In this document: positions 13,991-21,571 of the stretch, piece by piece
Numbering within the stretch: position 1 is the first letter of the stretch
How the letters are laid out: each line of letters opens with the position of its first letter
DNA from: Pseudomonadota bacterium
GTDB taxonomy: Bacteria; Pseudomonadota; Alphaproteobacteria; Micavibrionales; CSBR16-224
Assembly: GCA_013285465.1 (NCBI GenBank)
Contig: CP053449.1
Coordinates: 675,179-739,178, forward strand
Direction of reading: 5' to 3'
Length of the DNA stretch: 64,000 nt
The notes under the pieces: model-generated
Seen by the model: the letters and a program-made list of their open reading frames with translations, nothing else
Told to the model about the DNA's origin: nothing
Database searches by the model: none
Translations under genes and position numbers: made by a program

Positions 13991-15085
13991 TTATTTCGGC
14001 GTCGTGCCGCGGCGTTTTCCGGTCATGGAGGGCGGCATCGCACGTTCACGCGTGAAACTGCTCTTTTTACCAAGGTCGTCGAAATGCTGCGCCAGCCATT
14101 CATCAGCGGCCTGACGTCCGGCCTCAAACAACTCGTCCAGATGGTCGCGGTCAAAGCACAGCATATGCTCGGCTTTCAGTTCTTTGCCGATTTTGACGAC
14201 ATGGGTATGGATTTCCCTCAAGCCCAGCGCTGCCGCGGCTTCCGGATTTTTGGTCACCAGCTTGTTGTCGCGGTCGATTTCTTCCAGATCGCGGCGCAGC
14301 GAGGCGTTATTGGTAAATTCCATCACGCGGTCAATGCTGGAATTGACGACGGCCATGCCGTCGCGCTCATGCATTTCAATGGTCTGGATAATCAGCAGAT
14401 CGCCGTCGCATTCTTTCAAAGGGGCAATTGCGGGGTTGGCGGTATAGCCCCCGTCCAGATATTTGCGTCCGTCAATTTCGACCTCGCCGATGACGACGGG
14501 TAGGGCGCAAGAAGCTTTGACGGCTGTCGCCGTAATATCGCTGCGGTCGAAAATCCGTTCCTTATGCGCGTTGACATCGGTGGCGGCAATAAACAGCGGC
14601 ACGCCTTTTTTGTTTTTTTTCAGCGCGGCAAAATCGATGATTTTCTCCAGCGCCGCTTCAAACAAGCCTTCTCGTCCGTTCAATACGGAGAGCGTTGCGC
14701 CTTGTGTGACGGCTTTCAGGCTTTTCATGAAATCACCTGCGGCGGTTTCCGGCATCAGCTGTTTGAACATTTTTGCCAAGGCGCGGTTTGATTTGCTGCC
14801 TGCCGTGCCGACATAAGGCATTTGCTTGACGGCCTCGTCATAGGCAAGGCTGTTCCACAGGCTGCGGAGGGTGTCGCGTGCGCCTTCATTGCCGTTTTCG
14901 GCCAGCCCGTGGGCAATGGCAACAGCATTCATCGCACCGGCGCTGGTGCCGCTGATGGCGCTGACGTCAATACGGTCATCTTCCAAAAGCCGGTCGAGTA
15001 CGCCCCATGTGAACGCACCAAAAGCGCCGCCGCCCTGCATGGCGAGCATTACTTTTTTCTTTTCAGCTGTTTTCTTTTTTGTCAT
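13991..15085 (-). CDS. Patatin-like phospholipase (paralogue 1)
   Basis: A 364-residue lipid acyl hydrolase of the patatin/RssA type. The oxyanion-hole motif GGGAFGAFTWGVLD is followed by the nucleophile elbow GTSAG (Ser near residue 50) and the dyad Asp in DGGYTANPA. ATG 15085 has AAAGG 7 bases upstream on the minus strand and is preferred to 15121. A close paralogue lies at 19287-20471. It follows ruvX on the same strand with a 36-base gap and has no signal peptide. Confidence 0.92.
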   Translation of the reverse strand: MTKKKTAEKKKVMLAMQGGGAFGAFTWGVLDRLLEDDRIDVSAISGTSAGAMNAVAIAHGLAENGNEGARDTLRSLWNSLAYDEAVKQMPYVGTAGSKSNRALAKMFKQLMPETAAGDFMKSLKAVTQGATLSVLNGREGLFEAALEKIIDFAALKKNKKGVPLFIAATDVNAHKERIFDRSDITATAVKASCALPVVIGEVEIDGRKYLDGGYTANPAIAPLKECDGDLLIIQTIEMHERDGMAVVNSSIDRVMEFTNNASLRRDLEEIDRDNKLVTKNPEAAAALGLREIHTHVVKIGKELKAEHMLCFDRDHLDELFEAGRQAADEWLAQHFDDLGKKSSFTRERAMPPSMTGKRRGTTPK

Positions 15086-15121
15086 GGAAATACCTTTACC
15101 ATATAATATTGATTTTGGCAA

Positions 15122-17452: not shown

Positions 17453-17486
17453 TTGTTTGACAATTGTTAAATTATTATGTAAGGTT

Positions 17487-17513
17487 GCCTCCTTTCAAAA
17501 CGATGAAGGAGGC
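17487..17513 (+). promoter_or_regulatory. Hairpin that occludes the ribosome-binding site of the tandem-family gene 1
   Basis: GCCTCCTT (17487-17494) pairs perfectly with AAGGAGGC (17506-17513) around an 11-base loop. The right arm is the strong Shine-Dalgarno of the gene that starts at 17520. The same hairpin followed by TTCTTT could also work as a weak terminator for gatA. A TTGACA box lies at 17457-17462, but no convincing -10 box is seen at the right distance. Confidence 0.65.
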
Positions 17514-17519
17514 TTCTTT

Positions 17520-18035
17520 ATGGCCGATACACCGAAACGCAGTATTTTAAATATTTTTCAATCTGTTACCCAATCCGAAAATATGGAATCGTTGAAAACG
17601 GCGCTCGATTCAGTCGCCGCTTATGATGAATCCGACAAGGCGCAGCTGATAGACGCGCTGGAAGCACATGCCATTGAGTCTATTCAAGGCGATGTGGCCA
17701 CCAAAGAAGACTGGGATCAGGTCGCGGAATATATCGGTGTCTCCAATGCCCTGATGGGCGGCGGTGACCGCAGTGATGACGAAGCGCTGTTCCCGATGCA
17801 CAGTATTCTGGCGATTGCCGATAAAGTCGCCGATGCGAAAGGTGAGGAAACGGCACCATTACTGAAAGATATGCTGGAAACGGTCTCCGGTCTTTCCAAT
17901 GGCGATTATCACAGCCAGATGACTCTGTCGCTGACTTTTATCGATGTCGCGCGGAAACATACTCCCAGCCGGAAAGATCTGACCTCCAAGCCAAATCCGT
18001 TTCGCGGCAAAGGCTATGGCGGTCCGCACAAATAA
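17520..18035 (+). CDS. Tandem-family protein 1 (unknown)
   Basis: Unrecognised 171-residue protein, first of three tandem paralogues. It has no signal peptide or membrane segment and is acidic and probably all-helical. Features shared with the next two genes are LIDALE near residue 40, a block ADKVADAKGEETAPLLKDML near residue 101, SGLSNGDY, and the tail NPFRGKGYGGPHK at the very end. Note the first residues are MADTPKRSILNIFQ. The ATG is preceded by a perfect GGAGG sequestered in a hairpin. Confidence 0.75.
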   Translation: MADTPKRSILNIFQSVTQSENMESLKTALDSVAAYDESDKAQLIDALEAHAIESIQGDVATKEDWDQVAEYIGVSNALMGGGDRSDDEALFPMHSILAIADKVADAKGEETAPLLKDMLETVSGLSNGDYHSQMTLSLTFIDVARKHTPSRKDLTSKPNPFRGKGYGGPHK

Positions 18036-18074
18036 AAATTATCTATCAACCGCAATATAAAAGGAATTTTACGC

Positions 18075-18593
18075 ATGTCCGAAAATAACAAAACCAACCC
18101 GCAGCAAACTTTTAATGCCATTGCCCGCGCCGGCGATATTCCGACGCTGCAACATGCCCTGCGCCAAATTGACAGCCATGATGCCGATGCAAAAGCGGCG
18201 CTGGTCGATGCGCTGGAAAAATACACGATTCAGGAATTTAATGCCGATATGGAAAGCGGTGATCTGGAAATCGTCGAAGGTCTGATGGGGCTTGCCGACA
18301 TTCTTGGTGATGATCTGCTGGATGCTGTTGGCGATGATGATCTTTATGACTTCCATTCGCTGCTCTTGATGGCAGATAAAGTGGATGAAATCAAAGGCGA
18401 TAAAACCGCGCCGGTGCTGGTTGATCTGCTGGATGCCGCGTCCCGGCTGTCAGATAAGGACTATAACAGCATGACCAAACTGGCCAAAACCTTTATGGGC
18501 GTTGCCAAAAAGCATTTGTCGAACACTACGGATGCGGCGGAAAAACCGTCCAACCCGTTCCGCGGCAAAAAATTCGGCGGTCCGAACGCATAA
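18075..18593 (+). CDS. Tandem-family protein 2 (unknown)
   Basis: Unrecognised 172-residue paralogue of the flanking genes. Shared marks are TFNAIARAGDIPTLQHALRQ near residue 12, LVDALE, the block ADKVDEIKGDKTAPVLVDLL, RLSDKDYNS, and the C-terminal tail NPFRGKKFGGPNA. It is acidic in the middle (AVGDDDLYD) and basic at the end. AAAAGGA precedes the ATG. The gap from gene 1 is 39 bases, consistent with one operon. Confidence 0.75.
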   Translation: MSENNKTNPQQTFNAIARAGDIPTLQHALRQIDSHDADAKAALVDALEKYTIQEFNADMESGDLEIVEGLMGLADILGDDLLDAVGDDDLYDFHSLLLMADKVDEIKGDKTAPVLVDLLDAASRLSDKDYNSMTKLAKTFMGVAKKHLSNTTDAAEKPSNPFRGKKFGGPNA

Positions 18594-18626
18594 TTTATAC
18601 ATCTCATCTTTTAAGGAGCAAAACGA

Positions 18627-19112
18627 ATGTCTGATAAAAAACCTACCGTTCAGGAAACCTTTAACGCCATTGCCATGGCGGGCGATCTGAAGGCACTGGA
18701 ATCAAGCCTGACACAGATTGATCTGTTTGACGGCAATGAAAAAACAAAACTGATTGATGCACTGGAAACGGAATTTATCGAAGGCTTCTCCGAAGGTCTG
18801 CCGTCTCCGCAACAGATGGAGATGCTATTGGCGCTTAGCTCAATGGTTGGTGAAGGACCGGATGCGGAAGATGCGGAAATGATTCAGGGCTGCCTGTTGA
18901 TCGCTGATAAAATCCTGACGGAGAAAGGCGATAAAGCCTCGCCGCTGGTGCAAAAGCTGATCGAAAAAGCCGCGGGTCTGACGGATGAGGAATATAATAA
19001 CCCCTCAGCCCTGTTGAAAGCGGCTGTCGAAGCAGCAAGCGAAGCTAAAGCTGCGGCTCCGAAAACAACAAACCCGTTCCGTAACCGCGGCAATAAAGGC
19101 CCGAACGCTTAA
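18627..19112 (+). CDS. Tandem-family protein 3 (unknown)
   Basis: Unrecognised 161-residue paralogue, closest to gene 2 at the N-terminus (ETFNAIAMAGDLKALESSL). It keeps LIDALE, IADKILTEKGDKASPLVQKL, AGLTDEEYNN and the tail NPFRNRGNKGPNA. The region before the tail is Ala/Lys-rich and probably flexible. AAGGAG sits 9 bases before the ATG. A strong terminator follows, so the three genes end as one unit. Confidence 0.75.
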   Translation: MSDKKPTVQETFNAIAMAGDLKALESSLTQIDLFDGNEKTKLIDALETEFIEGFSEGLPSPQQMEMLLALSSMVGEGPDAEDAEMIQGCLLIADKILTEKGDKASPLVQKLIEKAAGLTDEEYNNPSALLKAAVEAASEAKAAAPKTTNPFRNRGNKGPNA

Positions 19113-19140
19113 GAAAAAGCGGGATATAAATTGAAAGAAA

Positions 19141-19169
19141 ACGCCCTTCCTTTGCGGAGGGCGTTTTTT
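19141..19169 (+). terminator. Terminator of the three-gene tandem family
   Basis: ACGCCC pairs with GGGCGT (extended to nine pairs with one G-U) around a 6-base loop, followed by six T (19164-19169). It lies 28 bases after the stop of gene 3. Confidence 0.88.
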
Positions 19170-19286
19170 ATTGCACCGCAAGATAAATACAAAAAACAAA
19201 TATATACGGTAATTTTTTACTGGAAATTCTGCCGCTGCTCCTTATAATAAAGCCTCACTTCAGGAATATGAAACAAAGGAGCCCGC

Positions 19287-20471
19287 GTGTCAGGGAAATT
19301 GCCGCCGAAATCGACGAAGAAAGCGCTGTCTGCAAAAGCGCCCAAAAAGAAGGTGACGCTCGCCCTGCAAGGCGGCGCATCCTATGGCGCATTTACATGG
19401 GGCGTGCTGGATCGTCTTTTGGAAGATGACCGTATTGAAGTCGTCGGCATCAGCGGTGCATCGGCAGGGGCTTTGAATGCGGTTGCCGTGGCTTACGGCA
19501 TGGATGAAAACGGGCCTGAAGGCGCACGTAATGCGTTGCGTCAAATCTGGCACCGCCTCAGCTATGAGGAAATCGCCAAAGACATGCCCGTACTGGGTAA
19601 GAAAAGCGCGGCCATGAATAAAGGTCTTAGCGCGGTTTTTAACGCGCTGGGTAAAATCGGCAACGGCACCAAAGTCAAAGCCGCCCATGCCAAAATTCAG
19701 GCCGCCATCATTGCGATGACGACCGGAAAAGGCGATTTTTTCGAGGATAATATCGGTCAGGTTATTGATTTTGAATCGATGAAGAAAAAACGTGACGGCT
19801 TGCCGCTGTTCATTACGGCCACCGATATCCATAATCACAAATCCCGTATTTTTGACCGTACTGATATTTCGGCGAAATCGGTCAAAGCGTCCTGCGCTTT
19901 GCCGGAATTGTTCAACGATGTCGTCATCAATGGCCGTCTGTACTGGGATGGCGGCTTTACCGAAAACCCGGCGATTACCCCGCTGAAAGAATGCGACGCG
20001 GATGATATCATCATTATCCAGACGCTGCCGTTCTTAAAACGCAACGGCGCAGATGATAAATCAACCGATGATGATATGCTTTATGAATTGCTGTTCAATT
20101 CATCGGTGCGTAAAGATGTGCAATATATTCAATATGATAACGCGCGCTATGACCGTGACCCCGAAGCGGCGAAAAAGCTGGGCATCAAAAAAATCAACAC
20201 CCATATCATCAATTCCGGGCAGGTCATGCCCAGCAAATTGACGATGTGTTTTGACCGCGATCATTTGCAAACCCTGCATGATATGGGCTATATGGCCGCC
20301 GATAAATTTATCGAAGATCATTTTGATGCCATCGGCAAACACAGCTCCTTCACCATGAATACGGCGCGGCCGCCTTCGGCGCATAAGCGTTATAAAAAGG
20401 AAAATATCCCCGCACCGAAAATGCCCGAGCCGAAAAAGAAAAAAGGTTTCTGGGGCAGTTTGTTCGGTTAA
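19287..20471 (+). CDS. Patatin-like phospholipase (paralogue 2)
   Basis: A 394-residue patatin. VTLALQGGASYGAFTWGVLDRLLEDDRI is nearly the same as in paralogue 1, the nucleophile elbow is GASAG, and the dyad Asp is in DGGFTENPA. The oxyanion motif has GGAS in place of the usual GGG. The start is GTG at 19287 with AAGGAG 6 bases upstream. It has basic ends (KSTKKALSAKAPKKK and PEPKKKKGFWGSLFG). A TATAAT at 19243-19248 may be its -10 box. It lies just after the tandem family, on the same strand. Confidence 0.92.
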   Translation: MSGKLPPKSTKKALSAKAPKKKVTLALQGGASYGAFTWGVLDRLLEDDRIEVVGISGASAGALNAVAVAYGMDENGPEGARNALRQIWHRLSYEEIAKDMPVLGKKSAAMNKGLSAVFNALGKIGNGTKVKAAHAKIQAAIIAMTTGKGDFFEDNIGQVIDFESMKKKRDGLPLFITATDIHNHKSRIFDRTDISAKSVKASCALPELFNDVVINGRLYWDGGFTENPAITPLKECDADDIIIIQTLPFLKRNGADDKSTDDDMLYELLFNSSVRKDVQYIQYDNARYDRDPEAAKKLGIKKINTHIINSGQVMPSKLTMCFDRDHLQTLHDMGYMAADKFIEDHFDAIGKHSSFTMNTARPPSAHKRYKKENIPAPKMPEPKKKKGFWGSLFG

Positions 20472-20503
20472 GCCTTTGGTGAAATATAGTTTGAGTGACT
20501 GCC

Positions 20504-21571
20504 ATGACGTATCCTGCAAAAGAAGAAAATAGAGACATTACGATCGGTGATACCACTGTCTCAGAGAAAACCATTGAAAAGTGGGCTAGCAAAGGAGCCT
20601 CAAAAATCCGCGATGTGGCTCTTGCGTGCGGAGCATATTTTTATCCTGCACAATTTTTAAAGGGAGCAGAGGCAACGACAAAGGCGCTTAAACATCAAGC
20701 TTTAACAGATGCGCAAACAAATCAGGAAATTGAAGCTATTCGCGAGGGGCGAAAAGAATATATTGATGGTGAGTTGAAAGATGTGGTTGTACGTGAAGAG
20801 CCCGATCTGCAAAAAGCCATGCTAGAGCAAGCAGCCAGAAACGTTTTGGCTGATGATTTAAGGAAACAATTCACCTTGAATCAGGTGGTTCTTGAAGCAG
20901 AAAGCATCGTTGCAGAACAAGCAGATGCAGAAATTAGTGATGAGCCCATCGATCCAGATTGGTTTCAAGCATTTAAATCGTACGCTGAGAATGCTCAAAA
21001 AACAGATTTAAAAGTCTTATGGTCTAAAGTTCTGGCGGGAGAAGCTATAAAGCCGGGAACATACAGTCTAAGGACATTTCATTTTCTGCAACATCTCTCC
21101 AAGAATGAAGCCCAGCTTATTGAAAAGCTGATGGCTGTAACTCTGGAGGGGAGAGTGATTTTAACAAATACAAGCGGCAAACTTGGCTTGGAAAACTATA
21201 TAACCGTTGACGAGATATTAGAGCTAGTCAATATGGGGGTGGTCATAGGCCACAATGCTGAGTTATCGATCACTCCAGTATTAAAACCCGATTCTTATTT
21301 GACGTTGCTTAATGCAAATAGAGGAATCTCTATAAAAAACAATACGCAAGAAGAGATACACGTTCGTATTTCTAATATGCTTCTAACGGCGTTAGGACTT
21401 AATCTCCTTAGTCTTATGGATGATGTGTGTATTGATGAGAGTTACCTTATCCAAGTAGCTCAACATTTCAGCAAGACAGTTGCCGATGCTGAAATATATA
21501 TCAGCATCAAGCGCGATGAAGAAACCATATCGTATCCTTTGGAGAATTATATTAAAAACAATAATCTTTAA
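20504..21571 (+). CDS. DUF2806-like protein, AT-rich gene
   Basis: The 355-residue product has the DUF2806 pattern: DPDWFQAFKSYAENAQKTDLKVLWSKVLAGEAIKPGTYSLRTFHFLQHLSKNEAQLIEKL near residues 150-210, preceded by a charged coiled-coil-like region. The family has no known biochemical function and is often found in variable genomic regions. The base composition is clearly more AT-rich than both neighbours, suggesting transfer. No good ribosome-binding site is seen; an in-frame GTG at 20495 is an alternative start. Its end overlaps the addA stop by 4 bases on opposite strands. Confidence 0.7.
   Translation: MTYPAKEENRDITIGDTTVSEKTIEKWASKGASKIRDVALACGAYFYPAQFLKGAEATTKALKHQALTDAQTNQEIEAIREGRKEYIDGELKDVVVREEPDLQKAMLEQAARNVLADDLRKQFTLNQVVLEAESIVAEQADAEISDEPIDPDWFQAFKSYAENAQKTDLKVLWSKVLAGEAIKPGTYSLRTFHFLQHLSKNEAQLIEKLMAVTLEGRVILTNTSGKLGLENYITVDEILELVNMGVVIGHNAELSITPVLKPDSYLTLLNANRGISIKNNTQEEIHVRISNMLLTALGLNLLSLMDDVCIDESYLIQVAQHFSKTVADAEIYISIKRDEETISYPLENYIKNNNL

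What the first reader, a model, noticed from the sequence alone, without database searches (positions are those of the whole stretch)
17520..19112. Three tandem paralogues of an unrecognised acidic helical family with a shared NPFR...GP tail
Seen: three genes of 161-172 residues in a row share LIDALE, an (I/M)ADK-x4-KG-x3-(A/S)P block, a (G/R)L(S/T)-x-x-(D/E)Y motif, and end in NPFR[GN][KR]..GP[HN][KA]. They share one terminator. Inference: tandem duplication with a fixed C-terminal tail suggests the tail is a recognition or anchoring signal, and the family may be a lineage-specific structural or effector set.
Basis: seen in the sequence. Interest (0 to 1): 0.7.

Follow-up and report, generated by a model that had tools for sequence, protein, structure and literature searches.

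The report
Tandem helical proteins with docking tail
Three neighbouring genes make small acidic helical proteins of an undescribed family found only in one order of Alphaproteobacteria; each ends in a conserved flexible Asn-Pro-Phe tail that is probably a docking signal, though its partner and the family's job are still unknown.

Summary
Three tandem genes (17520-18035, 18075-18593, 18627-19112, +) encode diverged paralogues (28-40% identical, own-genome E down to 1e-29). They are followed by one strong terminator and share the C-terminal NPFR..GP tail. They match no Pfam, NCBIfam, PHROGs, PADLOC, PDB, phage or plasmid entry.

The family is real and wider than seen. It occurs in 17 of 142 genomes of the order and was not convincingly found in a 385-genome sample of the class outside it. 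Copies come and go: G001 has a different trio at the same site, G026 has a dead copy, and a second locus here holds a distant NPF-bearing pair. AlphaFold gives a confident all-helical domain and a disordered tail. NPF[R/K] is among the best conserved stretches, so the docking-tail inference is supported, though some copies in one genus have lost it.

Best guess: soluble cytosolic adaptors that dock through the tail. Circumstantial evidence links them to acyl-CoA/polyhydroxyalkanoate (PHA) physiology: conserved patatin neighbour, prpB operon, co-occurrence with class III PHA synthase (15 of 17), one copy inside a PHA cluster, an NPFK-tailed thiolase. Phylogeny confounds this, and G003 contradicts it. 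A T4SS-effector role is unlikely (no VirB4).

The parts
17520..18035 (+). paralogue 1 (171 aa, P0003), tail NPFRGKGYGGPHK
   Evidence: own-genome E 1.4e-29 to paralogue 2; no ortholog at this site in G001
18075..18593 (+). paralogue 2 (172 aa, P0001), tail NPFRGKKFGGPNA; AlphaFold all-helical domain residues 9-148, tail disordered
   Evidence: 91-92% identical ortholog in G001; dN 0.045, dS 0.66
18627..19112 (+). paralogue 3 (161 aa, P0002), tail NPFRNRGNKGPNA; AlphaFold all-helical domain, tail disordered
   Evidence: ortholog in G001 with identical tail
17457..17470 (.). TTGACAATTGTTAA near-palindrome upstream of the first gene, perfect palindrome TTGACAATTGTCAA at the same site in G001; possible operator over a -35 box
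   Evidence: function inferred
17487..17513 (+). hairpin GCCTCCTTTC...GAAGGAGGC whose 3' arm contains the Shine-Dalgarno (AAGGAGG) of paralogue 1; a hairpin is also predicted at this site in G001
   Evidence: (z -2.96; G001 z -3.24); regulatory role inferred
19136..19170 (+). intrinsic terminator ending the cluster
   Evidence: z -4.02
19287..20471 (+). patatin-like phospholipase (Pfam PF01734), downstream neighbour also in G001 and, after prpB, in G003
13991..15121 (-). second patatin-like gene upstream of the gat genes; context only

Best explanation
This is a lineage-restricted family of small soluble cytosolic proteins: an acidic all-helical domain, a variable flexible linker and a basic C-terminal tail with an NPF[R/K] short linear motif, usually followed by a Gly-Pro. 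Shown: the family, its tandem birth-and-death evolution, the predicted helical domain with disordered tail, and selection on the tail. Inferred: the NPF[R/K]..GP tail binds a partner shared by all copies of a genome, and the helical domain provides the specific function, so the copies act as interchangeable adaptors. Weaker inference: the setting is acyl-CoA and polyhydroxyalkanoate carbon-storage physiology.
For: Tail: in a 21-member alignment NPFR averages 3.36 bits, against 1.87 for the core and 1.36 for the linker just before it. N, P and F are 3 of 10 invariant columns among 12 members. Paralogues in G014 share an 11/11 tail over a 32% identical core. AlphaFold models of two paralogues give helical cores with many residues above pLDDT 90 and tails below 60. 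Most members have an acidic core (-5 to -19) and a last-20 charge of +2 to +8. Two unrelated proteins of this genome also end in the motif: a thiolase (..SWNPFKRG, kept in G001 and G002) and an ankyrin protein (..INPFRPKPPQ) (chance about 0.015). Setting: a family gene overlaps prpB (TAATG) and is followed by a patatin gene in G003. Neighbours elsewhere are prpC, acetate-CoA ligase and acyl-CoA dehydrogenase. Class III PhaC occurs in 15 of 17 family-bearing genomes against 7 of 125 others. A family member lies between phaR and the phasin gene in G140.
Against: No binding partner was identified and no physical evidence exists. Extra copies in genus g17 have lost or changed the NPF motif while the domain is kept. 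The PHA association rests on about two clades, so shared ancestry can explain it. G003 has the family but no detectable PHA synthase, and seven genomes have class III PhaC without the family. In this genome the family genes lie far from the pha cluster (C1:692,698 against 1,550,930). Tail DNA of the G014 pair is nearly identical (1 of 36 nt differs), so gene conversion could explain that pair.
Confidence: 0.45

Rival explanations
1. PHA-granule-associated, phasin-like accessory proteins: the helical domain or the tail sits on the carbonosome surface and the patatin neighbour is a depolymerase.
For: Class III PhaC/PhaE/PhaB/PhaR cluster in this genome; co-occurrence 15/17 against 7/125; a member inside the PHA cluster of G140; NPFK tail on a thiolase, a precursor-pathway enzyme class; a patatin-like protein is a granule depolymerase in Haloferax mediterranei (PMC6631277, citing Liu 2015).
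Against: No match to phasin families; canonical Phasin_2 proteins already exist in such genomes; G003 lacks a synthase; the association is confounded by phylogeny; the predicted fold is globular, not a long amphipathic phasin helix.
Confidence: 0.2
2. Secreted effectors whose C-terminal basic tail is an export signal (as for type IV secretion).
For: Multi-copy, fast-evolving, lineage-specific; basic hydrophilic C-terminal tail.
Against: No VirB4 (PF03135) in the host genome; only 4 of 55 relatives have one, and G029 is the only family-bearing genome among them. No host-like domains. The tail motif is also on a cytosolic thiolase.
Confidence: 0.06
3. The shared tail is simply inherited and homogenised by local gene conversion, without a binding role.
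For: Tail DNA of the G014 pair differs at 1 of 36 nt over a 32% identical core.
Against: In this window the tails differ at synonymous sites while the residues are kept. NPF is kept across families f1, f3 and f4 of the order behind a hypervariable linker. An unrelated thiolase keeps WNPFKR across three species.
Confidence: 0.15
4. The tail folds back and caps the helical domain (intramolecular function, oligomer switch).
For: Opposite charges of core and tail.
Against: AlphaFold places the tail with pLDDT 40-59, unpacked; the shallow alignment limits this.
Confidence: 0.15

Closest known systems
NPF short linear motifs (ligands of EH domains and POLE2, PMC12808100)
   Same: Asn-Pro-Phe in a disordered region
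   Different: Those receptors are eukaryotic; no bacterial NPF receptor was searched for here; the basic residues and the Gly-Pro extension are specific to this family
Phasins (PF09361 Phasin_2, PF05597)
   Same: Small helical multi-copy proteins that occur with PHA synthase
   Different: No sequence match; globular predicted domain plus tail; a canonical Phasin_2 protein is present separately in G140
SSB-type conserved C-terminal docking tails (from general knowledge)
   Same: Folded domain, variable disordered linker, invariant short C-terminal peptide
   Different: The SSB tail is acidic and ends in DDDIPF; here the tail is basic and the domain unrelated

Membership tests
Any described protein family (Pfam, NCBIfam, PHROGs, PADLOC) | profile match above the curated cut-off | tested here: not met
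   nothing above cut-off; the best are chance-level hits
Phasin | match to Phasin_2 or another phasin profile | tested here: not met
   no phasin hit, while a real phasin from G140 scores 1e-14
Phasin | co-occurrence with a PHA synthase | tested here: inconclusive
   15 of 17 family genomes have class III PhaC, but phylogeny confounds and G003 lacks it
Phasin | location on PHA granules | not testable with these tools
   needs proteomics or microscopy
Type IV secretion effector | VirB/D4-type secretion system in the genome | tested here: not met
   no PF03135 in G000
EH-domain-type NPF ligand | NPF in a disordered segment | tested here: met
   (tail pLDDT under 60)
EH-domain-type NPF ligand | an NPF-binding receptor in the same organism | not tested
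   no search for a receptor domain was run in the host genome
Known helical fold in PDB | significant structural match | tested here: inconclusive
   Foldseek best E 0.4; VIA Z at most 6.6, within the noise for helical models

The most novel reading that the evidence does not exclude
A bacterial NPF-tail addressing code: a hub protein of this order binds C-terminal NPF[R/K] peptides and gathers several unrelated proteins (this family, a thiolase, an ankyrin protein) at one place, possibly the PHA granule.
Probability: 0.12. Interest if true: 0.75.

Novelty: new variant of a known kind. Interest (0 to 1): 0.42.

Why it matters
If the tail is a docking code, these alphaproteobacteria have a modular way of sending different cytosolic proteins to one partner, comparable to the SSB tail or to eukaryotic NPF motifs. 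If the carbon-storage link holds, it adds a new protein class to PHA granule biology in a poorly studied lineage. As it stands it is a well-supported new orphan family with one testable motif.

Tried and rejected
T4SS effector: rejected for lack of VirB4. Mobile element or phage origin: no match in phages, plasmids or PHROGs. Defence system: no PADLOC match for the three proteins; the patatin genes give only weak hits to CBASS phospholipases. Phasin by sequence: no match. First PHA test with PF07167 (class I synthase) seemed to contradict the PHA link; repeating it with the class III profile reversed this. Fold matches to 14-3-3, ARM/HEAT and COPI-like solenoids have Z 4-6.6 and are treated as generic. 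Other GP-tailed NPF proteins in the genome: the pattern with GP gives only the three genes plus four other sites whose translations are not this tail; the looser NPF-before-stop pattern gave the thiolase and the ankyrin protein, but only 16 candidate places were read. A viral-contig search with A2 could not be run (alignment too diverse).

Full report
What is there. The three genes are real, adjacent, co-oriented and homologous. A strong intrinsic terminator lies after the third gene and none between the genes. Upstream, the gap to gatA carries a TTGACAATTGTTAA near-palindrome and a hairpin whose 3' arm is the Shine-Dalgarno of the first gene. The palindrome, and a hairpin at the same place, are found in the sister species G001, although a different family copy follows there.

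How widespread. The whole genome (2.67 Mb, one contig) holds these three plus a distant tandem pair at C1:2131762-2132920 with an RNPF motif and a C-terminal extension (hhalign E 1.8e-8). A profile finds the family at E below 1e-3 in 17 of 142 genomes of the order, with several copies per genome in genus g17. In a 385-genome sample of the class it gave no full-length match outside the order; the one other hit is a 64-position fragment at 1.8e-4. That sample also missed no known member, but it included few genomes of the order. Nothing matches in phage or plasmid records or in family libraries. The order may be Micavibrionales; this is my inference from genome sizes and was not tested.

How it evolves. 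G001 keeps orthologues of genes 2 and 3 (91-92% and 81% identical), lacks gene 1 and has a different third copy between them. G014 has two intact copies; G026 has one intact copy and one with two stop codons. This is birth-and-death in tandem. dN/dS is about 0.07 and 0.14, so the surviving copies are functional.

What the protein looks like. Two AlphaFold models from window and G001 sequences agree on an all-helical domain with a disordered tail. No solved structure matches significantly.

The tail. NPF[R/K] is among the best conserved stretches, behind a linker that is the least conserved stretch measured. The codons of the three window tails differ at synonymous positions while the residues stay. 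Lineages have their own versions (NPFKKPQGPKQ, NPFRKGPNPS, NPFRKGPAA), and paralogues in one genome tend to share theirs. In g17 some copies carry RRPNRGGSFDL or KKGGGSFDL instead. In the same genome a thiolase ends in SWNPFKRG, kept in all three species of the genus and absent from the other relatives whose tails could be read, and an ankyrin-repeat protein ends in INPFRPKPPQ. Expected by chance: about 0.2 such proteins. This supports a docking motif, but the partner is unknown.

The setting. The downstream neighbour in G000 and G001 is a patatin-like gene. In G003 the family gene overlaps prpB by TAATG, and prpB overlaps a patatin gene. Elsewhere the neighbours are acetate-CoA ligase (g11), acyl-CoA dehydrogenase (g17, g21) and, at the second locus of G003, 2-methylcitrate synthase. 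Other loci have unrelated neighbours (pnp in G042, valS in G076, mraZ/rsmH at the second locus of G000). The host has a class III PHA cluster, phaC-phaE with phaB and phaR. Class III PhaC is in 15 of 17 family-bearing genomes and in 7 of 125 others (Fisher p 3e-13 over genomes, 7e-4 over genera), but relatedness inflates this. In G140 a member sits between phaR and a Phasin_2 gene. Against it: G003 has no detectable synthase, g6 and several others have the synthase without the family, and most family loci are far from the pha genes. I therefore treat the storage link as a lead, not a conclusion.

Verdict. A genuine, undescribed, order-restricted protein family with a probable C-terminal docking motif. 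The structural or effector reading is not supported; the effector version is disfavoured by the absence of VirB4.

Noticed in passing
L074 10285-11311: In G029, four tandem small ORFs (71-90 aa); three of them share their own C-terminal tail NGMKLPGK(P/L): another tandem set with a shared tail in this order.
   Followed up: no
L072:8256-9074, L073:7288-8121, L074:4166-4984: 272-277 aa relatives in g17/g21 with the helical domain and a different conserved C-terminal half ending in NKPK, in G040 near flagellar genes.
   Followed up: partly
window 17457-17513: Palindrome conserved in G001 plus a hairpin that would sequester the Shine-Dalgarno of the first gene; possible regulated leader.
   Followed up: partly
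L126 (G000:C1:2653982-2655310): Thiolase with a genus-specific Lys/Pro/Ala-rich extension ending in WNPFKRG.
   Followed up: yes
window 20495-21571: DUF2806/TIGR03899-type protein next to the downstream patatin gene.
   Followed up: no
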